Part shown: positions 17,769 to 30,162 of the stretch, in pieces | Layout: every line of letters starts with the position of its first letter | Position numbering within the stretch: the stretch's first letter is position 1 | DNA from: Rhodanobacteraceae bacterium | GTDB taxonomy: Bacteria > Pseudomonadota > Gammaproteobacteria > Xanthomonadales > Rhodanobacteraceae | Reading direction: 5' to 3' | NCBI GenBank assembly: GCA_009996615.1 | Contig: JAACZU010000001.1 | Coordinates: 248,001 to 312,000, forward strand | Length of the DNA: 64,000 bases | Translations under genes and position numbers: made by a program | The notes under the pieces: model-generated | What the model saw: only the letters and a program-made list of their open reading frames with translations | Databases searched by the model: none | What the model was told of the DNA's origin: nothing

Positions 17769-18485
17769 CTACTCTGCCCAACGCTCCGCCCCCAGCGGCA
17801 AGTCGTTCAGTTCCGCCCTTGCCTCGCGCCAGGTCGGATAGTGCTCGTCCAGCAGGGCCACGAATCGCTCGCTGTGCGTCGGCTCGATCAGGTGAAGCAT
17901 CTCGTGGACGATCACATACTCGAGAAGATCCTTCGGCTTCTTCACGAGTTCGGTATTCAGCCGGATGTGGCGGGCGCGTGGATTGGCGCTGCCCCACTTG
18001 GTCTTCATGCGTTGCAGGAAATAGCCTGCCACGCGCACGCCAAGGCGTGACTCCCACTTGGCGATAAGCGGAGGCACCGTCTGGTGCAGCAGGGACTTGT
18101 GCCATTCGTGCATCACCGTCGCGCGAACCGCCTCGGTGCTGCCTGGCCGCACAATGAGCGTGATACGCCGATGATCAAGCTTCACGCGCGGCTTCGCGTC
18201 CTGATGTTCGACCGCCAGCAAATGGCGTCGTCCCCACACGTAGTGGGTTTCCCGCCCGACGAACCGGCGCGGCGCTTCGCGCGCCTGCAATGCAAACCGG
18301 GCCTGTTGTTCCCGGATCCAGGCCAGCCTGGAAATGGCGTAAGCGCGTGCCACTTCGGTCCGCGTGCCAGCGGGCGCGACCAGGCTCACGCGGCCTTCCG
18401 GCGGGTGCACGGACAGATGGACGTGCTTGACCGACTTGCGGATCAGCTCGATGGCGATCTCGCCGAGTTGCAGGATCTCGGTCAT
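17769..18485 (-). CDS. YgjP-type zinc metallopeptidase (DUF45)
   Basis: A 238-residue protein of the DUF45/YgjP group related to M48/SprT metallopeptidases. The zinc motif HEMLH is at 194-198 with the third ligand region EPTHSERF (His204). The N-terminal domain includes a WIREQQARF helix and [16 protein letters not shown]. There is no signal or membrane segment. It is the last gene of the restriction operon, overlapping hsdR by 4 nt (ATGA). Genes of this family recur next to type I hsdR genes in many genomes, which suggests an accessory or regulatory proteolysis role (for example control of HsdR), but that is inference. Confidence 0.9.
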
Positions 18486-21400
18486 CCGTATACGGCCTGA
18501 TTCCTGACCAGCTCGAACAGCGCCTGCGTCGCCACGCGATTGCGGTCGAGCAACGGAAACAGTGCGTTCAATACCTGCGCTTCACGCGCATGATCGCCCT
18601 TCCAGCCCGCCGGCGCCTGCTCGCGCATCACGCGGTCGATCGCCAGCGCCAGGTTCGCCAGCCTGTCCATGTAGTCGGCACGCGCATCGACAGCGTCTAC
18701 CTTGGCACCACGCCCGGCGGCGAGGACCTGCGGCAGGTTGCGATAAATCAGCGCCGCCTCGCGGTTGCCGTGCAGCAGCGCCGGAACGTCGGCGTCGGGT
18801 TGTTTCGCCGCCAGCTTCCTGACCAGCGCCTCCGCCCTGCGCAGGAACTCGTCGTAGGCGGCCGCGTCGGCCCGGCTTTGCTTGATCAGATCGTCCAGCA
18901 GCTTCGACATTTCCGAGTAGAAGCGCGGGTCGGTGAGCTGCTCGCGGATGATCGTCTTGCGGACGTTGTTGATGATTCCCTCGGCGATGGCGTTGCGCGA
19001 CAGCTTGCCCTTCTCGTTGAGCTTGCGCGCGATTGCATCGTGGATGCCGGTCTGGACGATCAGTTCGACCAGCGACAGGTCACCAAGATCCCCCTGCGGC
19101 GCGGCGGAGTCGGCCTGCACGTAGGTATTGAGCAGGTGGCGCATGTCCGCCTCGTAGGGCTTGATGTCCAACTCCTCGCCGGAATGCTTCTTGATGGCGG
19201 CGCGCAGGTCGCTGTACCCCTTCACCTCGTTCTCGATGGCCTGCGCCTCGGCCTCGGTGTAGCCGGCCTTGGCCAGTTCGCCGGCCATCTCCGACCAGGC
19301 CCGCACGAACGCGGCGACTGCCTTGTAGAACGCGATGCGCAGCGGCTCGGTATCGCCGAGCGCCCGCGGGTTGGCGGCGTCGCCGCAGAAATAGAGCAGG
19401 TATTGCTCGACCTCGCGCGGCGGCGGCACCGGCTCGCACAGATGGCGCAGCGCCTCGCGCGTCAGGTCGAGCTGCTTGCGCCCTTCCTTGATCCAGTCCT
19501 TCAACTCGACGTTGTTGTCGGTGCCATCCCCGTCGATGTCCAGTTCGTCAGAGCTGTAGACGGCGATCGCTTCCTGCACGTCCTTGAACAGCTCCTTGAA
19601 GTCGACGATGTGCCCGTAGTCCTTGTCGTCGCCGTCGAGCCGGTTGGTGCGGCAGATCGCCTGGAACAGGTTGTGGTCGCGCAGCGCGTTGTCGAGATAG
19701 ATGTAGGTGCAGCTCGGCGCATCGAAACCGGTCAACAGCTTCGACACCACGATCAGGAGCTTGGTGTTCGCCGGCTCCTCGATGAAGCGGCGCTTGATCT
19801 CGCTCTCGTACTTCTCGGTGGACTTGAACCCGTTCAGGACGTGCCGGGTGTAGGTGTCGTACTTGTAGCGCTCGTCGCCGTTGGGCGGCTCGCGCGAGAT
19901 CGCGTTGTGGTTCGGCTCGAACGAAGTCACGATGCCGACGTGCGGCCCGAACGAGGTGTTCTGGAATAACCTGAAGTAGTGGCAGGCGTCGTAGATGTCG
20001 GCCGCCACCAGGATCGCCGTGCCGCGGTCGTTGTTGAGCCGTGGTTTGAGGCCGAAGTCCTCGATGATGCTGGCGACAATGCGCTGCTTGCGCTCCTGTG
20101 CGCTCATCAGTTCCTCCAGCGTGGCCCAGCGCCTGCGCAGCACCGCCTTCTGGAAGTTGTTGAGGTGTTTGGTCTTCTGCTCGAACCAGGCGTCGATGGC
20201 CGCGCGGCTGCCGAGCCGCTGCGGCACGTCGCGCGCCTCGTACTTCAGGTCCAGCACCACCTTGTCGGCCACCGCCTGGTGGAACTTGTACGTGTGGATG
20301 TAGGTACCGAACACCTCGCGTGTGGTCTGCTTGTCCCTGCGCAACAGCGGCGTGCCGGTAAAGCCGATGAACAGCGCGCCGGCGAGCCAGCGCTTCATCT
20401 GCCGGTTCATGTCGCCGCCCTGCGTGCGGTGGCACTCGTCGACGAACACATGGAAGCGCCCGTGCACCGTCGGCGGATCACCTTCGAAGTCGGAGGGGTC
20501 GAACTTGTGCACCAGCGCGCACGCCAGGCGCGGCATGGTGGCGCGAAGCGTCTCCACCAGTTCCGCGCGCGAGGCGATGCGCGGCGACTTCGCCTCCGGC
20601 CCGATCACACCGGCGTTCTTCATCACGCCTTCGATCTGCCGGTCCAGCTCGTCGCGGTCGGTGACGATCAGCACGCGCGCCGCGGGATCGTGCTCCAGCA
20701 ACCACTTGGCGATCAGCACCATCAGGATGCTCTTGCCGCTGCCCTGGGTGTGCCAGATCACGCCGCCCTCGCGGCGGCGGATGCGCTCCTGCGCGGCCTT
20801 CACGCCCGCGTACTGGTGCGGGCGCGGCACCTTCTTCTGGCCGGCGTCGAAGATGATGAAGTTGCGGATCAGGTCCAGCAGCCGCGCCTTGCCGCACATC
20901 TGCGCCAGCGGCCGGTCGAGCAGGCTGCCGGGCTCGCTGGAGGCTGTGGCGCTCTCATCCTTCCACTCGACGAAGAACTTCTCCGGCGTGCCGGCGGTGC
21001 CGTAGCGCAGCCCCTGCGCGTCGCTGCCGGCGAACACGAGCTGCACCGTGGCGAAGAACGGCCGGTGGAAGATCTCTTCCTGGTTCGTGATGAGCTGGCG
21101 AACGCCATCGGCCACCTCGACCGAGCTGCGCTTCAACTCGATCACGCCGACCGCAAGGCCGTTGAGGTACAGCACCAGGTCCGGCCGCCGCTCGTGGCGG
21201 CCCTTGAGCGTGACTTCCTCGGCCAGAGCGAAGTCGTTCGCTTCCGGATGCTCCCAGTCCACCAGATGCACCGTCTGGTGCACCTGCCCGGCCGCGGTCT
21301 GCACCGGCACGCCGTAGCGCAGCAGTTGGTAGGTGCGCAGGTTGGCCTGGTAGAGCGTGATGCCAGTGACGTCGGCCGCGGTCTCCAGTTTCTGCAGCGC

Positions 21401-21586
21401 GGCGGCAATCTGCGCGTCGCTGTAGCCGCGCGTGGAGAGATTGCCGCGCAGCAGCGCCGTCTCGATGTGGCGATTGCCCGCCCGCTCGCTCCAGTCGCCG
21501 AGGTGGCGGTAGCCGAGCGTGTCGCGGAACAGCGCGACCACGCGGTTCTGGGTGTGGCGTTCGGAGCGGGGAGCCGCATCGGTCAT
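18482..21586 (-). CDS. hsdR: type I restriction enzyme, R subunit
   Basis: A 1034-residue HsdR. The N-terminal PD-(D/E)xK nuclease shows [19 protein letters not shown] (Asp136, Glu150, Lys152). The SF2 translocase has Walker A TQGSGKS (280-286), [10 protein letters not shown] motif Ia, DECH (383-386), GFTGTP motif III, and later [16 protein letters not shown] and QAICRTNR (motifs V and VI). With HsdM and HsdS it forms the restriction complex that translocates and cuts unmodified DNA. All catalytic motifs are intact, so the system is probably active. It overlaps the AlbA_2 gene by 4 nt upstream and the ygjP-like gene by 4 nt downstream. Confidence 0.97.
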
Positions 21587-23067
21587 GGGTTCAGTAGGTC
21601 CTTGTCCAAGGTGTCCAACAGCGCGCGTCCGGCAGCCGTCAGGCGGTACCGCTGCTGGCTGCTCAAGGGTTTATGGGGAATGGTCATTTCGACGAGGCCG
21701 CGATCCAGAGCCGGTCGGAGATAGCTGTCGCGAAAATGCTTCCTGTCGTTCAGACCCAGCGCCGCCTGAAGTTCGGATCGTTTCATTTCCCCTCGAATCG
21801 TCGCCAGCAGCCGCCGAACCTCCGCGGTGACTTGGGGGGTGACTTGGGGGGTGACTTGGGGGGTGACTTGGGGGGTGACTGAACCGATCCTGGGAGGGGC
21901 CACGACTTGGGTATGCGGCTGCGGCCTGGCGATGACCACCGCGAACTGGTTGGCTGCGACATCGTCGAGCAGCTCGACCTCGGGCCAGGCCTGCAGGGCG
22001 CGCGGAATGCCGGTCCCAAGGCCGCGATACGGCAGGATGTGCACCGCGTGCTCGGTCAACGTGGGATTGCGCCGGTTGGTGGCCCCGCGCCGAATCTCTT
22101 TCGTCGTCAGGCTGTCGGGCAGATGGCCGGGACTGATGATCTCCACACGATCCGCAAACACCATGATGCGTATCGAAGCGCTGGTGAAGTAGTCACGGTG
22201 AATCAGCGCATTGACGAGCAGTTCCTCCAACGCTTGTTCCGGAATCTCCAGTTGCCCCGGGGTGTTGAAACCTCGTCCCGCCTGCACATGGTGCAGGTTG
22301 CGGCGGATGAAGGCGAAGCTTCGTTGATACTGCTCCAGTAACGTGCCATCGATGTCCTCGCTGTCCAGATAGCGGCTGTCGTGCAGGGCCGTGCCGGGAA
22401 AGGTCACGGCCTTGACCGCGAAAGCCGGCCGCCAGCGCTGCGGCTGGCGCCCGAACAGCATCAGCCCGGCCAGATTCAACTCGCGCCCGTCACCGAGGCC
22501 GAGGTTCTGCAGCACCTGCCCCAGCGGCTGGCCGGCAAACTCGTTGCCTTGGCCAAAGCGGCGACTGAGATAGGCATGAAAAGCCTTGTCGTCGACGTCC
22601 GCCACCGACGTGCCGGCCACCGGCACCACGTCGGCATAGACCAGCCCGGCGCGCTGGAACATCCGCTGCATCTCCTCGCGTGCCGTCACATGGCGCTTGT
22701 CCGCCCCCTGCTTGACCCAGATGCGGCCCTGATGGTCGACATACGGCTTGGCAAGCCCATCCGGCACGCTCACGACGATCACGATTCCGTGGGCCGTCTG
22801 CACGTTTTCGGTCAGCGGATGAACCGGCGGGCGCACATGCTGCGAGGCGGCATTACCCAGCAACTGATTCAAGCGCCTTACCGCCCCGGCATCCAGCCCG
22901 GCCACCGAGCCGTCATCGGCCACGCCGAGAAACAACGTGCCGCCGCCGCTGTTGGAGAATGCCGCCAATTCCGCAGCCAGACCGTCCACGTTGGTGACAT
23001 CGCGCTTGAACTGCTGGCGGCTGTCTTCGCCGCGAGCCAATCGTCGCAGCAATTCGTCTTCGGTCAT
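21583..23067 (-). CDS. AlbA_2 (Schlafen-type) ATP-binding protein with winged-helix tail
   Basis: A 494-residue protein. The N-terminal AlbA_2 domain has [19 protein letters not shown] (about 35-53). A central GHKL-like ATPase region includes [14 protein letters not shown] and [11 protein letters not shown] with [10 protein letters not shown], as in RecG-like/ATP-binding proteins of this group. The C-terminal part has a tandem TPQV linker and a winged-helix region ending [10 protein letters not shown]. The start at 23067 is preferred over one 99 nt upstream that reaches into the next gene. Relatives occur in defence islands and as transcription regulators; whether it is an effector, sensor or regulator here is unknown. 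Gap to the upstream gene 16 nt. Confidence 0.88.
21827..21875. repeat. 12-bp tandem repeat inside the AlbA_2 gene
   Basis: Four perfect copies of GTGACTTGGGGG (plus strand) encode four TPQV units. As the unit is a multiple of three, changes in copy number keep the frame and would alter the linker length between ATPase and winged-helix parts. Confidence 0.9.
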
Positions 23068-23083: not shown

Positions 23084-25072
23084 TCAGTCTTCGTCCAGAC
23101 TGGACAACAAGACGTCCAGCATCTGCTGCTCGTGCGCGGCGATGCTATCGGCATTCCAGGGGGCATGCTGCATCATCAGATACTCCTTGATGCTGTCGAA
23201 ATCGCCTTGCTTGAGTTCCTTCTTCGCTGTCGGCGTGAAGTTGCTGAGGCGGGAGTTCTTGCTGTGGCTGATCAGGCACAAGTTGCCGAAAGTATCCAGC
23301 GTCGGCCGATCCAGTGGCGCGATGCCGGGCAGCGGAGTCTGCGGATAGTGGTGCTCGACGGAGCTGCGAAACGTGAATTCGTGTCGCTTTGTTTTCCCGT
23401 CACTCGCCTTGCACCAGAGCAGGTAATCCAGGTAGTTGAAAACGAAGTTGTTGCGGATATTCGGGAACGACAGCCAGTGGCGCAGCCGCTCGACGTCGAC
23501 GTTGTCCCTGCGCGCCTGGCATGCTCCCTTGCGGACAAACACGATCTCCTCGTATTCGGCCGGCTCCTCGGCCACGAAGCGGTCAAAGAAAAACGCCTTG
23601 GCGACCGATTCGAGGTGCGCGAGGTAGGCCCGCGCCTCGATGCGCTCCGCGGTGAACAGATAGTGCAGCGCTGCGCCGAGCCAGTGCTTGTAGGCCAGCG
23701 TCGGGGTCGATACATGGAACGCCGCGAGCAGCATCAGAATCCGCCGATTGCCGCCCTCGTCCGCCCCGTCCTCGCCAAACGTGTTGACGTACCGGCTACG
23801 CGCGGCGCGGTTGGCCGTCCCGTCGTGGCCGCACTTGAGCCGCTTGAGGCTCCAGCCATCCGTTCCCCTCGCAAACTCGCGCTTGATGACGTAGTGGTCG
23901 TACAGGTACTTGCAGCGCAGCAGATCGAACGCGAACTGCTTCACCCGCCCGATCGGGTCCGCGGGGGCCGTGGGCTTGAGCACATGCTTTCTAAACGTGT
24001 CCAGCAGGCGCTTGTCGTCGAGCGGAATGTCCGCTCCCAAGCTCACGCGCAGCACGTGCAGCAGAAAGTTCGGGAAGTCGATGACCGAGTTGAAACGCTC
24101 CGGCGATTCGTCGCCGCCCGTTGCATCCGAGCGATCCGGCACGGGCGGCCTCGATGAAATGATCTGGTTGAGGCTCTGCTCGTCATGCCCCTGGTCGGAC
24201 GCCACCGACCCGGCCAGCGCCGCCGCCAGTTCGTCGAAATTCCCCACCTGAAAGGCGTCCCAATCGTCGCCGAAGAGCTGCGTTCGTCGTTCGGATGAGA
24301 AGGCCGTCTGGACGTACTTCTCCATGTTGGCACAGGCTTCCCAAACCCGGTGCAGGCAGGCCTGGCTTTGCCGCCGCTCGGTCTCGTCGGCAATGTCCTG
24401 CAACACCTTCAGCAGCCTGGCCTTCAGCACCTCGTGCTTCTCGAGCTGCTCGCCGCGGTTGTTCATGACCTCGAAGTAGTGGTTGAGATCGGTTTCGGCG
24501 GGAACCTCCACCCGCATGATCTGCACATGCCGGCGCAGGAACGTTGCGAAGCGATCGAGCGTGATGCCCCGTTCCTCGAACTTGAGCGGAACGATCTTCT
24601 GGATCAGGCGATAACCATTCAGGATCGCAGTGCTGGCGGCGGCCCGGGCATCCTGGTCCTTGATCGGATCATCATCCGCGCCGGTTGCCGCCCAGATGGC
24701 CGCAAGCGCCCGTTGCGAGCGCGGGCGACTCTCGAAATCGATCCATGCGCCATCCAGCCCCTCCAGCTCGCCGGGCAGCTTCTTCCGCAGCCAGCTCGCC
24801 AGTAGCGACAGCGTGGTCAGCCGCTGCTGGCCGTCGATGACCTCGAAGGCCGGCCGCCCTGCCCCGCCGCGCGGGAAGACCACCAGCGAGCCGATGTAGT
24901 AGTCACGGACTTTGTCGGCGCCGTCGGCGGCCATGGCGTCGATCACATCCACGATGAGCTGGGTGATCTCGCCTTCGTCCCAGGCGTAGTTGCGCTGATA
25001 CATCGGGATGACGTAGCGCGCACTGCCCGCCAGCAGCTCGCCTATCGAAAGCTGAACGATCCGCTTATCCAT
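23084..25072 (-). CDS. GmrSD-like protein (DUF262 + DUF1524)
   Basis: A 662-residue protein with an N-terminal GmrS-like DUF262 domain: IPMYQRNYAW (22-31) and DGQQRLTTLSLL with DGQQR at 80-84. Its C-terminal GmrD-like DUF1524 nuclease domain has EHHYPQ (573-578), FGNLCLI and NSRLSNF, an HNH-type core in which the usual EHIxPQ reads EHHYPQ. Characterised relatives cut modified DNA (GmrSD, BrxU) or respond to phosphorothioates (SspE). The nucleotide-hydrolysing and nuclease motifs both appear intact. It overlaps the preceding single-domain DUF262 gene by 8 nt, so the two are translated together. Confidence 0.9.
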   Translation of the reverse strand: MDKRIVQLSIGELLAGSARYVIPMYQRNYAWDEGEITQLIVDVIDAMAADGADKVRDYYIGSLVVFPRGGAGRPAFEVIDGQQRLTTLSLLASWLRKKLPGELEGLDGAWIDFESRPRSQRALAAIWAATGADDDPIKDQDARAAASTAILNGYRLIQKIVPLKFEERGITLDRFATFLRRHVQIMRVEVPAETDLNHYFEVMNNRGEQLEKHEVLKARLLKVLQDIADETERRQSQACLHRVWEACANMEKYVQTAFSSERRTQLFGDDWDAFQVGNFDELAAALAGSVASDQGHDEQSLNQIISSRPPVPDRSDATGGDESPERFNSVIDFPNFLLHVLRVSLGADIPLDDKRLLDTFRKHVLKPTAPADPIGRVKQFAFDLLRCKYLYDHYVIKREFARGTDGWSLKRLKCGHDGTANRAARSRYVNTFGEDGADEGGNRRILMLLAAFHVSTPTLAYKHWLGAALHYLFTAERIEARAYLAHLESVAKAFFFDRFVAEEPAEYEEIVFVRKGACQARRDNVDVERLRHWLSFPNIRNNFVFNYLDYLLWCKASDGKTKRHEFTFRSSVEHHYPQTPLPGIAPLDRPTLDTFGNLCLISHSKNSRLSNFTPTAKKELKQGDFDSIKEYLMMQHAPWNADSIAAHEQQMLDVLLSSLDED

Positions 25073-26453
25073 GGAAGCGCATCTCCCGGAACAGACCCTC
25101 GATCAATTCGGTCCGGGTCGACCGGATCGTGCCGACCGCCGGCAGGCTGTGGTTGAAGAAATCGGCCGGCTGGATGGCCGCCCGCATCACGCGGAACGCG
25201 TTGTTCTCCAGCACATAGTTGTCCATCGTCGCCAGTTGCACGGCCTGCTGCTCCAGACGCAAGCGATAAGCCCAGATGAAAATCCGGTGGATGGCGCGGG
25301 ACAATTCCGCCTCTCCGAACTTATCCATGTAGTAGAGCAGCAGGCAATCGAACATCGATCGCACATAGCCATCGCCGGTGCGGTGCCTGCCTTCATACCT
25401 GTTGATCGTCGACAGGATCCGCCCAGCGAGATCATCGAGCGCGGCACTACCCAGCAGGGGACCGGGCAGGCCATCGCCGCGGATCTGCGCGACCTTTCGC
25501 TGGTAGTGGTCCGTCATCTCGAAGAAGCGCCGCCCGTTGATGACGAGCTGGTCGAGCTGGAACGGGAACGCCGCGTCCTGCCCCTCCATTCGCGGCAGCC
25601 GCTCGGCAGCACAGCCATCAACGCAGCGATCGACGATGCGCAGGTGTTCCGCATACGGATAGCGCGGCGTGGGCGGCCGTGACGCCGGGTTCACGCCCTT
25701 GAACAGCGCCGTGTCGTCCTTGCCGAAGTAGCGTGCAGACTCGCCCTTGAGCCAGTTGCGCACGCGATAGAGGTAATTGGCGAACAGCGATGCCAGCGCC
25801 CGGGTTTCGCTGGCCTCCCAGCGCTCCACCGTCCGCATCTTCAGCGCCTCATCCCGGCTGTCGAACTCGCGCAGGTGGTACGCCTTCAGCAGGTCATGCG
25901 GTTCCAGATCGCGACCGCGCGCATTCTGCGAGTCGAAGAACTGGAACGCCTCGGCCATGTCGCCGAGCGCAAAGCAGACGACCTCGCAGCGGTTCAGAAG
26001 GAAGTCGATCCGCGATTCGTCGAAGTCGCCCCGCGCCACGATGCGGCAAATGGCCTGGTAGTTCTCGTAAAGGCGGTGCTTGCTGATGTCGCTCGAGAAC
26101 ACCGGAACCACCATGCCGCGGTCCAGGCTCTCCAACTGACCCTGCAGCTCCCGACTTTTCAGGGTTTCGCGCCGGCACTCCATCAGCGCGCGCACCGCGA
26201 GCATCAGCGTCAGCGTGCGTTGCTGCCCGTCGACGATGTCCAGCCGACCCTCGTTCGCATGAAACACGATGGTGCCGAGTCGGTAGGCGGGCTTTTGCCA
26301 ATGCGTGGCGATATCGCCGAACAACTGCGCGACGTTCTTCTCGGTCCAGCGGTACGGGCGCTGGTAGTCCGGGATGGCCAGGTCGGGTCGCGAGAGCAAG
26401 TCCCGTACGGACAGGATGCGCTGGTGCGGAACCTCCATCGGCAGCGCGCTCAC
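25065..26453 (-). CDS. GmrS-like protein (DUF262 only)
   Basis: A 462-residue protein with one DUF262 domain: IPDYQRPYRWTEKNV (27-41) and LDIVDGQQRTLTLMLAV (DGQQR at 75-79), the ParB-like nucleotide-hydrolysis motif of GmrS. No DUF1524 HNH motif is found in its C-terminal half, which is helical. It is therefore a plausible sensor or NTPase partner of the DUF262-DUF1524 protein encoded next. It overlaps hsdS by 4 nt upstream and the partner by 8 nt downstream. Confidence 0.88.
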   Translation of the reverse strand: MSALPMEVPHQRILSVRDLLSRPDLAIPDYQRPYRWTEKNVAQLFGDIATHWQKPAYRLGTIVFHANEGRLDIVDGQQRTLTLMLAVRALMECRRETLKSRELQGQLESLDRGMVVPVFSSDISKHRLYENYQAICRIVARGDFDESRIDFLLNRCEVVCFALGDMAEAFQFFDSQNARGRDLEPHDLLKAYHLREFDSRDEALKMRTVERWEASETRALASLFANYLYRVRNWLKGESARYFGKDDTALFKGVNPASRPPTPRYPYAEHLRIVDRCVDGCAAERLPRMEGQDAAFPFQLDQLVINGRRFFEMTDHYQRKVAQIRGDGLPGPLLGSAALDDLAGRILSTINRYEGRHRTGDGYVRSMFDCLLLYYMDKFGEAELSRAIHRIFIWAYRLRLEQQAVQLATMDNYVLENNAFRVMRAAIQPADFFNHSLPAVGTIRSTRTELIEGLFREMRFHG

Positions 26454-27694
26454 AGCAGGCGTGTCCTGCCGGTCAGGAGTTCCTGCATCATTGCCTGCTT
26501 CAGGTCGCGGGTCTTGGCACGGCGGGCTTCGAGGGCGGCGGTTTCGGCGTCCATGTCGGCGAGGACGGTGGCGATGGCGGCTTGTTCTTCTCGCGACGGC
26601 AATCTCACGTAGAAATCTTGCACCATTCCCTTATTCAAATTTGCCTGCGTACCATGCTGCCCGAGACTCTTGACGCGCCCCTTAATCGACACCAAGTAAT
26701 AGTAGAGAAATTCGTTGTCGATTTGATTATCAGGGCGAATGCCGAGAATGGCCTGGCTAGTACAAACCGCCGTATGTGCGATGGCGCACTCACCAACTGA
26801 TGCGTACATCGCGTACAAAATCGTGCCAGCGGGAAACATCTGCGCTGCCGATCTCTCGACGCCGAGAGAAGTGAGGGTCTTCTCTGTCGCGACGAGGACC
26901 TTGCCAGCCTTCGTAATGTCGGCGATTGACACCCACGGGATGCCGCCTCCGTAATACGCCGGGACCGATGACAATGGCGTGCCACCACTATCCATCTCGG
27001 CCACCTCTCCCAAGCGCTTCACCTCCCACTCCCCGCTGAACCCGGGCAGGCGGGTTCGGCCGGTGAGGAGTTGCTGCATGGCGGCCTGCTTGAGGTCGCG
27101 CTTCTTGGAGATCAGTCGGTCCAGCGCGCCCAGCAGCGCGTCCACCTCGCTCAGCGCCGTGGCGATGGACCGTTGTTCGGGCTGCGGAGGCACGATAATT
27201 TGTAACCCCATCAGGTCGCGGGTATAAATCGCCGCCACACTCGTGGTGCCTGTCGCAAGTGCACGAAGACGCGCCACCGAACCTGTGGTGTTCAGTGCAT
27301 AGTTCGCGTACTCGTTGGAACAAATCTCGTTGGGGTCAAACTCCAAACGCATGAGGTTTGAGTTGTAGTACGCAACGGGAAGCTCATCGCGCCAAATCGC
27401 TACTTTTCCGACAAGGTCGAGCGTATTTCGCGTATTGAATAACACGTCACCGCAGGTAAGACGGTGCTGACTTTCTGGATTTACCCCCGGAACAATGAAC
27501 TCGACCTTCGACAAATCGAACTGACCGCGCGCAATGTTTCCCATTTTCATGAGAGGAAGATCGGCTACCGAATCCTGATTTGCGTAGTTGCCGCCGAGTC
27601 GCCCCTTGGCAAGAACTGAGCGCAAAGGCTTCACATCCCATGCCGCGGGAATAACCCCTATCTCCGTCTGCTTGTACCCTGCCCTCAGTTCCAC
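26450..27694 (-). CDS. hsdS: type I restriction enzyme, specificity subunit
   Basis: A 414-residue HsdS with the usual two target-recognition domains (about 15-170 and 225-370), each followed by a conserved coiled-coil. The two spacers are near-repeats: KKRDLKQAAMQQLLTGRTRLPGF at about 198-220 and KTRDLKQAMMQELLTGRTRLL at the C terminus. It sets the bipartite DNA target for methylation and cleavage; the target cannot be predicted from sequence. The recognition domains are visibly richer in A+T than the surrounding genes, consistent with domain exchange. It overlaps hsdM by 10 nt and the DUF262 gene by 4 nt. Confidence 0.96.
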   Translation of the reverse strand: MELRAGYKQTEIGVIPAAWDVKPLRSVLAKGRLGGNYANQDSVADLPLMKMGNIARGQFDLSKVEFIVPGVNPESQHRLTCGDVLFNTRNTLDLVGKVAIWRDELPVAYYNSNLMRLEFDPNEICSNEYANYALNTTGSVARLRALATGTTSVAAIYTRDLMGLQIIVPPQPEQRSIATALSEVDALLGALDRLISKKRDLKQAAMQQLLTGRTRLPGFSGEWEVKRLGEVAEMDSGGTPLSSVPAYYGGGIPWVSIADITKAGKVLVATEKTLTSLGVERSAAQMFPAGTILYAMYASVGECAIAHTAVCTSQAILGIRPDNQIDNEFLYYYLVSIKGRVKSLGQHGTQANLNKGMVQDFYVRLPSREEQAAIATVLADMDAETAALEARRAKTRDLKQAMMQELLTGRTRLL

Positions 27695-30162
27695 GCTGCC
27701 CCCATCCTCTTAAGGTGCGCGTCCACCTTGGCCGCGAGGGCATCCACGTCCCCGGCGAGCGTCGGCAACGGCGCGGCATAGCGCTCGGCCAGCATCCGCA
27801 CGCGGCCGGTCAACGTCTGCGACACGCGATCCAGCTCACCCTGCACCGCGGCGGCGAGCGCGGCCAGCCACTTGTCGTCGACCACCAGCGTCCTGATCGC
27901 GTCCTCGGAAAGCTTCGGATACTTCGCGTGCAGCTTCGCATCCAGCGCCTCGCGCGCGGCCTTGAGCCCGGCCTTCGCGGCGGCCTGCGCGTCGAGCAGC
28001 GCGGCGTAGTCCTTCAGCACCTTCGCCTCATCGGCGCAGTCCTTGTCCTTGCCGATCTCCTTAAGGCGTGCCTTGATCGCCTTGGCGGTGATCTTCTGCT
28101 TGTCGCCTTCGCCCTCGACGACTTCGGCCAGCAGGCCATCCTCGCCAGCGTGTTCCTCGCGCAGCTCGTCGAGTTGCTGTTCGGCGGACGCCAGCTCGCT
28201 TTCCAGCGCCTCGATCGCGCGCTGCTCGGCGGCGAAGTAGCGCGCGACCATCAGCGCGACCGGAATCAGCTCGGACTTGAAGCGGCGCTTGCCGATCTCG
28301 TAGTCGTGCGGCTCGCCCCAAACGAGCTTGTTGTTCTTGTCCTTGACCTTGAAGATCTCGCGAGGCTGCGCGCCGGCCTGCCAACCGTCGGCGGCGATCA
28401 GGTAGGCGTCGTCCTGCATCGCCGCGTTCCAGTAGTCCATCAGGTGCTGGTAGACGTCGTAGGCGTCGAGCAGCCTGGTCTCGCGGAAGGTGGCGAGCAG
28501 GTCTTCGGCGATCTGCTCGATCAGCGGCTTGGGATGGCCGTTGCGGTCGAAGCCCTTGAGTTGCGCGAGGTTCGCCGCCTTCCAGCGCTCGAAGAGCCGG
28601 TTCACCGAGGCGATGAACGCGGCGAACTCCGGGTGGCCGAAGATCGCGGCCTTGACCTCGGCGATCGGGAGCTTGAGGCGTGCGTAGCCGGGACGGGCCG
28701 ACTCGAACAGCTCTCCGCGCACGCCGGGCAGTACCTGCCAGTACGCGGCGAGCGCGTCGAGGTCGCGCTCCGGGATGCCGCCGTTGAGGTGGGCGTCGAT
28801 GTCGTGCAGGTCCTCCGGCTCGCTCGCGTCGATGTAGCGCGGCAGGTTGAGGTTCCAGTCGTTCCTCGCGTCGGCGATCTCCTCGAACGGCACCATGCGC
28901 GCGTAGCGCGGCACGTCGGCCTGCTTCCTGAAGGTGTCGACGATGCGGTGGATGTCCTGCTCGCGCAGGCGGTTCTTGTTGCCGTCCTTGATGAAGCCGC
29001 GGCTGGCGTCGATCAGGAAGATGCCCTTGCGCGCCTGCGCGTTCTCCTTGTCGAGCACGAGGATGCAGGCCGGGATGCCGGTGCCGTAGAAGAGGTTCGC
29101 CGGCAGGCCGATGATGCCCTTGAGGATGCCGCTCTCGATCAGCTTGCGGCGAATCAAGCCTTCCGCGCCGCCGCGGAACAGCACGCCGTGCGGCAGGATG
29201 CAGGCCGCCTTGCCGGTGCCTTTCATGCTGCGGATGATATGCAGCAGGTAGGCGTAATCGCCCTGTTTCTGCGGCGGCTCGCCCCAGGCGAAGCGCTGGA
29301 ATGCATCCTGCGCGGGGATCAGCCCGGTGCTCCAGCTCTTGTCCGAGAACGGCGGATTGGCGACCACGTAGTCGTAGGTGCGCAAGCGCTCGCCGTCCTT
29401 GAACTTCGGCGCCGCGAGCGTGTTGCCGGAGAGGATGTTGGCGGTCGGGAAGTCGTGCAGGATCATGTTCATGCGGGCCAGGCCCGCCGTGGTCACGTCC
29501 TTCTCCTGCCCTTCCAGCGTGATCGGCCTGCCGGCCTCGGCGGCCACCTTCAGCAACAGCGAGCCGGAGCCGCAGGTGGGGTCGTAGGCCGTGGTCGCGG
29601 CCACCGTGTTGTCTGGCGAAATGCCGATGACCTTGGCGATGACGCGGCTGACTTCGCTCGGCGTGTAGAACTGCCCCTTGCTCTTGCCACTCTCGGTGGC
29701 GAAGTGGCGCATCAGGTATTCGTAGGCGTCGCCGAGGATGTCGTCGTGCTCGGCACGGTTTTTCGAGAAATCGAGCGCCGGGTTCTCGAAGATCGCGATC
29801 AGGTTGGTCAGGCGTTCGACCATCTCCTTGCCGTCGCCGAGCTTGGCCGGGTCGTTGAAGTCCGGGAAGTCGCTGCGCGCGAGGCGCTGGTTGGCCTCGA
29901 TCAGCGGCTGGATCACCTGCGTGTTGATCTTGTCGCCGATGTCGGGCGCGCCCTTCAGCGCCACCATGTCCTTGAAGCCCGCGCCCTTGGGGATGACGAC
30001 GGGCGGCGCGAAGTCGTCCGAGTCGGCGTACTTGTCGGAGACGTACTTGATGAACAGCATGAACAGGACGTAGTCCTTGTACTGGCTGGCATCCATGCCG
30101 CCGCGCAGTTCGTCGCAGGAGGCCCACAGGGAGGAGTAGAGGTCGGATTTCTTGATGGCCAT
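27685..30162 (-). CDS. hsdM: type I restriction enzyme, adenine methyltransferase subunit
   Basis: An 825-residue N6-adenine methyltransferase. The N-terminal helical domain (1-150) is followed by GQFYTPSEVSRVIAKVIG (163-180), motif I YDPTCGSGSLLLKVA (about 193-207) and catalytic NPPF (269-272). The protein is longer than classic HsdM (about 520): the extra C-terminal 300 residues include a coiled coil (EQRAIEALESELASAEQQLDELREE) and a RMLAERY tail. This extended form is common in one subfamily. It heads the seven-gene operon. The ATG at 30162 fits family N termini (MAIKKSDLYSSLWASCDELRGGMD), though no good ribosome site is visible. Confidence 0.96.
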   Translation of the reverse strand: MAIKKSDLYSSLWASCDELRGGMDASQYKDYVLFMLFIKYVSDKYADSDDFAPPVVIPKGAGFKDMVALKGAPDIGDKINTQVIQPLIEANQRLARSDFPDFNDPAKLGDGKEMVERLTNLIAIFENPALDFSKNRAEHDDILGDAYEYLMRHFATESGKSKGQFYTPSEVSRVIAKVIGISPDNTVAATTAYDPTCGSGSLLLKVAAEAGRPITLEGQEKDVTTAGLARMNMILHDFPTANILSGNTLAAPKFKDGERLRTYDYVVANPPFSDKSWSTGLIPAQDAFQRFAWGEPPQKQGDYAYLLHIIRSMKGTGKAACILPHGVLFRGGAEGLIRRKLIESGILKGIIGLPANLFYGTGIPACILVLDKENAQARKGIFLIDASRGFIKDGNKNRLREQDIHRIVDTFRKQADVPRYARMVPFEEIADARNDWNLNLPRYIDASEPEDLHDIDAHLNGGIPERDLDALAAYWQVLPGVRGELFESARPGYARLKLPIAEVKAAIFGHPEFAAFIASVNRLFERWKAANLAQLKGFDRNGHPKPLIEQIAEDLLATFRETRLLDAYDVYQHLMDYWNAAMQDDAYLIAADGWQAGAQPREIFKVKDKNNKLVWGEPHDYEIGKRRFKSELIPVALMVARYFAAEQRAIEALESELASAEQQLDELREEHAGEDGLLAEVVEGEGDKQKITAKAIKARLKEIGKDKDCADEAKVLKDYAALLDAQAAAKAGLKAAREALDAKLHAKYPKLSEDAIRTLVVDDKWLAALAAAVQGELDRVSQTLTGRVRMLAERYAAPLPTLAGDVDALAAKVDAHLKRMGAAWN

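What the first reader, a model, noticed from the sequence alone, without database searches (positions are those of the whole stretch)
23084..26453. Split GmrS/GmrSD pair: sensor-like and nuclease-fused DUF262 proteins
Both proteins keep the YQRxYxW and DGQQR motifs, but only the second has the HNH-type DUF1524 (EHHYPQ at 573-578). Genes overlap by 8 nt. The pair looks like two NTPase subunits, one with a nuclease, suggesting a hetero-oligomeric switch.
Basis: partly seen in the sequence, partly recalled or inferred. Interest (0 to 1): 0.6.

Follow-up and report, generated by a model that had tools for sequence, protein, structure and literature searches.

The report
TgvAB-like two-gene phage restriction pair
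Two overlapping genes inside a type I restriction operon encode a sensor-type protein and a sensor-plus-nuclease protein laid out like a recently described two-protein anti-phage system (TgvAB of Vibrio cholerae), so the pair is real and probably works as a unit, but it is a new member of a known kind.

Summary
On the minus strand, A (25065-26453, 462 aa) is DUF262+DUF7834 and B (23084-25072, 662 aa) is DUF262+DUF1524; both keep YQRxYxW and DGQQR, only B has EHHYPQ, and they overlap by 8 nt. Apart from one extra AlbA_2 gene this is the order of tgvAB in V. cholerae VPI-2, a two-protein type IV system that needs both DUF262 motifs and the nuclease (PMC11411939). B's catalytic His (574) fits TgvB (571), not GrwA (431). 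In a 369-genome class sample, all 9 genomes with a near-full-length B have A beside it. A and B distances track each other (Mantel r 0.905, 19 pairs), and two loci with 78-80% identical hsdM/hsdR carry A and B only 33% and 30% identical, so the pair moves as a cassette. Most likely both proteins sense modified phage DNA and hydrolyse NTP while B cuts. Joint action is supported by analogy; hetero-oligomer and switch are inferred. TgvA/TgvB sequences could not be compared directly.

The parts
25065..26453 (-). Gene A: DUF262 (GmrSD_N) + DUF7834, 462 aa, GTG start, no nuclease domain
23084..25072 (-). Gene B: DUF262 + DUF1524 (GmrSD_C, His-Me nuclease), 662 aa
25065..25072 (-). 8-nt overlap of A and B, also 8 nt in 7 of the 23 other measured pairs
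26346..26366 (-). YQRPYRW of A (residues 30-36); Y30 corresponds to the sensing Tyr of DndI/SspE by alignment
26217..26231 (-). DGQQR of A (residues 75-79)
24980..25000 (-). YQRNYAW of B (residues 25-31); Y25 aligns with DndI Y25 and SspE Y30
24821..24835 (-). DGQQR of B (residues 80-84)
23339..23356 (-). EHHYPQ of B (residues 573-578), catalytic His 574
26450..27694 (-). hsdS, type I specificity subunit; overlaps A by 4 nt
27685..30162 (-). hsdM, type I methyltransferase; start taken at the in-frame ATG where profile matches begin (the ORF itself runs to 30249)
21583..23067 (-). Extra cargo gene AlbA_2 / HATPase_c_4 / Fic-like_C, 494 aa, 16 nt after B
18482..21586 (-). hsdR, type I restriction subunit
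17769..18485 (-). YgjP/SprT-like metallopeptidase gene at the end of the operon

Best explanation
The pair is a TgvAB-type, two-protein, modification-dependent (type IV, GmrSD-family) restriction system embedded as a cassette between hsdS and hsdR of a type I restriction-modification operon. Type I enzymes attack unmodified foreign DNA; the embedded pair would attack phage DNA whose bases are hypermodified and so escape type I. Each protein has a DUF262 domain with a P-x-Y-Q-R sensing pocket and a DGQQR NTPase site. A and B most likely form a hetero-oligomer on modified DNA, NTP turnover releases the block, and the single His-Me nuclease of B nicks or cuts. Shown here: anatomy, motif conservation, constant pairing in the sample, largely parallel descent, joint cassette replacement. 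Shown elsewhere for TgvAB: need for both proteins, both DGQQR motifs and the nuclease, and action on T-even-type phages. Inferred: that this pair has the same activity, that it forms a hetero-oligomer, and which modification it sees.
For: Domains and motifs. Gene order hsdM-hsdS-A-B-hsdR as in VC1769-VC1765, one gene added. Catalytic His 574 versus 571 in TgvB; distance from this His to the N of the NS motif is 32 here and 30-35 in the 21 rows measured correctly, 31 in five of them, versus 31 for TgvB H571/N602. All 9 genomes with a near-full-length B in a 369-genome class sample have A beside it. Mantel r 0.905 for 19 pairs, 0 of 9999 permutations; trees share 9 of 16 splits versus 0.22 with shuffled labels. 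L026 versus L030: hsdM 78%, hsdR 80%, A 33%, B 30%. The sensing Tyr of DndI (Y25) and SspE (Y30) aligns with the Tyr of YQR in B, and through the A/B profile alignment in A. Models: A to SspE Z 16.4 and DndI Z 14.0; B to SspE Z 17.3, DndI Z 17.1, BrxU Z 11.3.
Against: No binding, NTPase or phage data exist for this locus. Seven of 16 splits differ between the A and B trees, some with support of 86-97, so occasional re-pairing or tree error cannot be excluded, and the Mantel test does not remove shared ancestry. BrxU matches the A model only weakly (Z 6.7; Foldseek E 0.16). PADLOC (2023) names neither protein as part of a two-gene system: best hits are HEC-06 for A and Orf5 for B. Two of the 24 A rows that cover the pocket (L030, L031) lack the proline of P-x-Y-Q-R.
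Confidence: 0.85

Rival explanations
1. B is the actual modification-dependent enzyme, and A is a helper that protects B from phage-encoded inhibitors or supports it structurally; A's own sensing and NTPase sites are not part of the cleavage cycle.
For: The TgvAB authors name this possibility, because some GmrSD enzymes are inhibited by the injected phage protein IPI*. B has the complete single-chain layout and fold.
Against: DGQQR changes in TgvA also abolished defence; YQR and DGQQR are kept in every A row that covers them (24 of 24), which a passive helper would not need.
Confidence: 0.08
2. A and B serve the type I enzyme itself, for example by tuning HsdR or widening its targets, rather than being a separate system.
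For: The genes overlap hsdS and lie in the same operon; at least 10 of the 24 other loci also show hsd genes near the pair.
Against: In V. cholerae tgvAB alone protects and an HsdR nuclease mutant changes nothing; the pair also occurs with no hsd gene recognised in the stretch held (for instance L005, L007, L024); A-B identities do not follow hsdR in five embedded loci (r about -0.3); the same slot holds unrelated genes.
Confidence: 0.04
3. A and B are two independent DUF262 enzymes, or A is a decaying duplicate of B, that merely sit side by side.
For: Their DUF262 domains are homologous (HHalign E 4.8e-35).
Against: Constant order and spacing, conserved motifs in A, correlated distances and joint replacement; A has a different C-terminal half with no sequence match to B.
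Confidence: 0.03

Closest known systems
[quoted passage not shown] PMC11411939)
   Same: Two genes; A with N-terminal DUF262 and no DUF1524, B with DUF262+DUF1524; order hsdM-hsdS-A-B-hsdR; catalytic His 574 versus 571
   Different: An extra AlbA_2 gene lies between B and hsdR here; identity to TgvA/TgvB not measured; activity untested. The paper sees likeness of TgvA to GmrSD enzymes only in DUF262, whereas the A model here aligns with DndI and SspE along most of its length (suggestion only).
GrwAB of WASA V. cholerae (PMC12137116)
   Same: Two DUF262 proteins, one with DUF1524, both required
   Different: The partner without nuclease is encoded second; catalytic His at 431; GrwB and TgvA are said to differ outside DUF262.
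Single-chain GmrSD family: Eco94GmrSD, BrxU, SspE, DndI
   Same: B has the DUF262-linker-DUF1524 layout and fold; DGQQR and P-x-Y-Q-R shared with SspE and DndI
   Different: They are described as single-protein enzymes; BrxU and DndI are homodimers. No separate DUF262 partner.
RloF of Campylobacter jejuni type I loci (as told in PMC4619093)
   Same: DUF262 gene between hsdS and hsdR
   Different: In the passages seen it is described as one DUF262 element, not as a two-gene unit.

Membership tests
GmrSD family (type IV restriction enzymes) | N-terminal DUF262 with QR, DGQQR and FxxxN motifs | tested here: met
   Both A and B
GmrSD family (type IV restriction enzymes) | C-terminal DUF1524 His-Me finger nuclease in the system | tested here: met
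   B only: PF07510 5.5e-10; H574, N597, N606. A on its own lacks it, so A alone is not a GmrSD enzyme
GmrSD family (type IV restriction enzymes) | Cleaves modified but not unmodified DNA | not testable with these tools
   Needs biochemistry
TgvAB | Two adjacent genes: DUF262 protein without DUF1524, then DUF262+DUF1524 protein | tested here: met
TgvAB | Embedded between hsdS and hsdR (the original locus; most homologues counted in the paper lie outside such clusters) | tested here: met
   paper
TgvAB | Sequence homology to VC1767 and VC1766 | not tested
   Those sequences were not obtained; only the residue number of the catalytic His agrees within 3
TgvAB | Both proteins needed against phages with modified cytosines | not testable with these tools
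   Needs phage assays
GrwAB | Nuclease-bearing gene first, catalytic His near residue 431 | tested here: not met
   The gene without nuclease is first and the His is at 574

The most novel reading that the evidence does not exclude
A is a nuclease-less GmrSD protomer: DUF262 plus a helical domain that corresponds to the linker domain of DndI and SspE, ending where their nuclease begins. The pair is then a heteromeric version of the BrxU/DndI homodimer, with two modification sensors and two NTPase sites but one nuclease, so that an A-B dimer nicks one strand and a 2:2 assembly or two binding events are needed for a double-strand break: an AND-type safety lock exchanged as a unit in the hsdS-hsdR slot.
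Probability: 0.35. Interest if true: 0.55.

Novelty: new member of a known kind. Interest (0 to 1): 0.3.

Why it matters
Why some GmrSD-type enzymes need a second DUF262 protein is left open by the TgvAB and GrwAB authors and a review. This locus and the 24 related loci gathered here (some near copies) suggest that the two genes travel and are replaced as one cassette, that both proteins keep the sensing tyrosine and the NTPase motif, and that only one has a nuclease. That makes a heteromer/nickase hypothesis directly testable with purified proteins.

Tried and rejected
A as the plain GmrS half of a split GmrSD: rejected, B is a complete GmrSD chain and A has its own DUF7834 domain. A's C-terminal half as a sequence homologue of B's middle or end: HHalign of A 200-462 with B 225-560, 440-662 and 225-662 gave probabilities of 0.2-0.3%, so the fold match stays a suggestion. 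The 83-nt overlap of the third gene with B comes from taking the first ATG; a start at 23067 lies 16 nt after the B stop. A fixed link between the AlbA_2 gene and A-B: rejected; BLASTP found no match to it in the 20 loci, and it occurs without A-B in five loci. Phage origin: 2 of 50,697 phage records match, over 47% and 21% of A; 8 IMG/VR contigs encode relatives, 4 of them with both genes in the stretch held. Single-sequence search of A against solved structures: none at E up to 1; the 23-row profile found six distinct DUF262 sequences. DUF7834 is in 0 papers of the library. Library searches. The Gomez and Waters paper on TgvAB was sought by a DOI recalled from memory and not found; I know it only as cited in PMC11411939 and PMC12409362.

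Rows dropped: from the Mantel and tree sets (19 of 25 loci) I left out L004, L025 and L032 (incomplete), L008 and L041 (near copies of L007 and L023) and L022 (no intact B). Of the 11 class genomes with DUF7834, G229 ends in the contig near A with no B seen, and the G284 match (35 bits, positions 94-219) lies inside a single 587-aa DUF262 protein, not an A-B pair. L024's His position is a false early match; one search shows its motif in register. Of 22 genomes with a close hsdR, four gave no readable hsdS-hsdR slot: G076, G085 and G292, and G038, whose hsdR contigs I did not fetch.
Full report
What is there. A (25065-26453, minus strand, 462 aa) and B (23084-25072, minus strand, 662 aa) overlap by 8 nt. 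Pfam gives DUF262 (PF03235) in both, DUF1524 (PF07510) only in B, and DUF7834 (PF25202, E 5.8e-69) in the C-terminal half of A. YQRxYxW, DGQQR and FxxxN are present in both; EHHYPQ is at 573-578 of B only. In the whole 3.91 Mb genome PF07510 has one match, in B, and PF03235 has three: A, B and one on another contig.

Context. Around the pair lies a tight operon: hsdM (27685 to about 30162), hsdS (26450-27694), A, B, an AlbA_2/HATPase_c_4/Fic-like_C gene (21583-23067), hsdR (18482-21586) and a YgjP/SprT-like gene (17769-18485); neighbours overlap by 4 to 10 nt except for a 16-nt gap after B. Apart from the AlbA_2 gene this is the order of the V. cholerae VPI-2 cluster VC1769-VC1765, with tgvA and tgvB between hsdS and hsdR (PMC11411939: abstract and outline, parts 1 and 2 of section 4, sections 9 and 10 read; review passages of PMC12409362). 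There TgvA has DUF262, TgvB has DUF262 and DUF1524, neither protects alone, changes in either DGQQR or in H571 or N602 of TgvB abolish defence, and the pair acts on Tevenvirinae with modified cytosines. B here has its catalytic His at 574; GrwA of the related GrwAB has it at 431 (PMC12137116, section 11 and passages). I could not obtain VC1767 and VC1766, so homology to them is not measured.

Is the pair a unit? With the DUF7834 profile 11 of 369 class genomes match. With a profile of B (alignment A2) on the 369 class genomes, 47 match at E 1e-10, but only 9 with E of 1.5e-80 or better over most of the profile; the next is a C-terminal fragment with a stop (E 2.0e-33), and the rest shown are short DUF262 matches. 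These 9 are all among the 11, and in all 9 A lies directly upstream of B. The other two are a contig end (G229) and a weak match inside a single 587-aa DUF262 protein (G284). In a phylum sample 4 of 398 genomes have DUF7834; the two new ones, G463 and G550, also show A followed by B (L038, L039). YQR and DGQQR are present in 24 of 25 A rows, the other lacking its N-terminus, and in 24 of 24 B rows; EHxxPQ is found in 22 of 24 B rows, the two others ending before the nuclease domain (L004 with a stop 31 nt from its contig end, L025 cut by the contig).

Parallel descent. Distances among 19 A proteins correlate with those among their B partners (Mantel r 0.905; 0 of 9999 permutations). Quick maximum-likelihood trees share 9 of 16 splits, against 0.22 on average and at most 3 with permuted labels; the 7 unshared splits in each tree include some with support of 86-97, so perfect co-descent is not claimed. 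In five hsd-embedded loci identities of A follow B (r 0.98) and not hsdR (r -0.27), while hsdM follows hsdR (r 0.88) (ten non-independent pairs). The clearest case is L026 versus L030: hsdM 78% and hsdR 80% identical, A 33% and B 30%. The pair appears to have been replaced together in an otherwise conserved type I operon. In at least 10 of the 24 other loci hsd genes were recognised near the pair (a lower bound, flanks are short and BLASTP was used).

The slot. Of 369 class genomes 22 have a close hsdR (E 1e-150 or better). Eighteen further regions were fetched; 15 of these plus the window, L026 and L030 show both hsdS and hsdR. In these 18 slots A-B is present in 3. AlbA_2-type genes are in 6 (window, L088, L089, L092, L098 and a short one in L090); KwaB-like genes in L090 and L092; Fic-domain genes in L091 and L093; a BRO gene in L094; an M78 peptidase in L095; DUF3800 in L096; a single DUF262 gene in L087; and L085, L086 and L101 have no ORF of 150 aa or more, L102 only one on the opposite strand. 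Outside that sample, L006 has a NERD-domain gene and L010 a zeta-toxin-like gene after B. So the AlbA_2 gene of the window looks like separate cargo. G151 has its A-B pair on one contig (L027) and a close hsd operon with other cargo on another (L091). The system is patchy: 0 of 12 other same-genus genomes have DUF7834, several of them incomplete, and of 20 relatives only one, of the same order, has a close hsdR, which suggests horizontal gain.

Distribution. tblastn of A matches 917 of 72,556 plasmid records, 855 of them Klebsiella; in 27 of the 30 best rows two DUF262 proteins are annotated under the match. In L023 the pair has the same 8-nt overlap and follows an hsd operon; in L024, of a more distant type, the overlap is 4 nt. 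The TgvAB authors report 1,341 tgvAB hits and 79 five-gene clusters in 41,142 genomes. PADLOC models that match best are HEC-06 (A, 2.7e-28) and Orf5 (B, 1.3e-39).

Mechanism. DndI Y25 and SspE Y30 mediate phosphorothioate sensing, in a hydrophobic patch with P23 and Q26 of DndI (PMC11662687 section 19). In the HMM alignment these are the P, Y and Q of P-x-Y-Q-R in B, and the A/B profile alignment puts the YQR of A on the same columns. Both A and B thus keep the sensing tyrosine and the NTPase motif; the proline is kept in 24 of 24 B rows and in 22 of the 24 A rows that cover it. BrxU is an interlocked homodimer that shifts to monomers with ATP (passages of PMC8565348) and DndI is a homodimer. 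By analogy I infer that A takes the place of one protomer. The A model (mean pLDDT 79, pTM 0.65) aligns with SspE (Z 16.4, 353 residues, rmsd 19.9) and DndI (Z 14.0, 360 residues, rmsd 8.5) from residue 3 or 10 to 458-460, above the next unrelated rows (ParB-type, Z about 5, covering the DUF262 part only). This hints that DUF7834 corresponds to the linker domain of these enzymes, against the published view that TgvA resembles GmrSD only in DUF262; but the match to BrxU is weak (Z 6.7), Foldseek TM-scores are 0.30-0.35 at best, the rmsd is large, and profile comparison finds no sequence support. It is therefore the novel reading, not the main claim.

Verdict. The added points are the cassette replacement, the constant pairing in the sample and the shared sensing tyrosine.

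Noticed in passing
window 21583-23067 (-): AlbA_2/HATPase_c_4/Fic-like_C gene between B and hsdR; homologues occupy the hsdS-hsdR slot without A-B in L088, L089, L090 (short), L092 and L098.
   Followed up: partly
L026 and L030: Closely similar type I operons (hsdM 78%, hsdR 80% identical) with very different A-B cassettes (33% and 30%).
   Followed up: yes
L022 13400-16135: In a Picosynechococcus plasmid B is in pieces, with an IS1 family transposase gene among them, while A is intact.
   Followed up: no
L023 15674-21409: In a Klebsiella plasmid the A-B pair lies between a type I operon and the Hhe anti-phage gene.
   Followed up: no
L040 (own genome, contig C2, 53749-54348 of the contig): A third DUF262 protein of the same genome, outside the window; no BLASTP match to A or B at 1e-5 in that stretch.
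   Followed up: no
L010 6135-7102: A small gene and a zeta-toxin-like gene sit between B and hsdR in a Verrucomicrobiota contig.
   Followed up: no
L097 3833-5635 (-): A 600-aa DUF262 protein with a DIHHIFP stretch lies directly upstream of a close hsdR: possibly a single-chain GmrSD in the same position.
   Followed up: no
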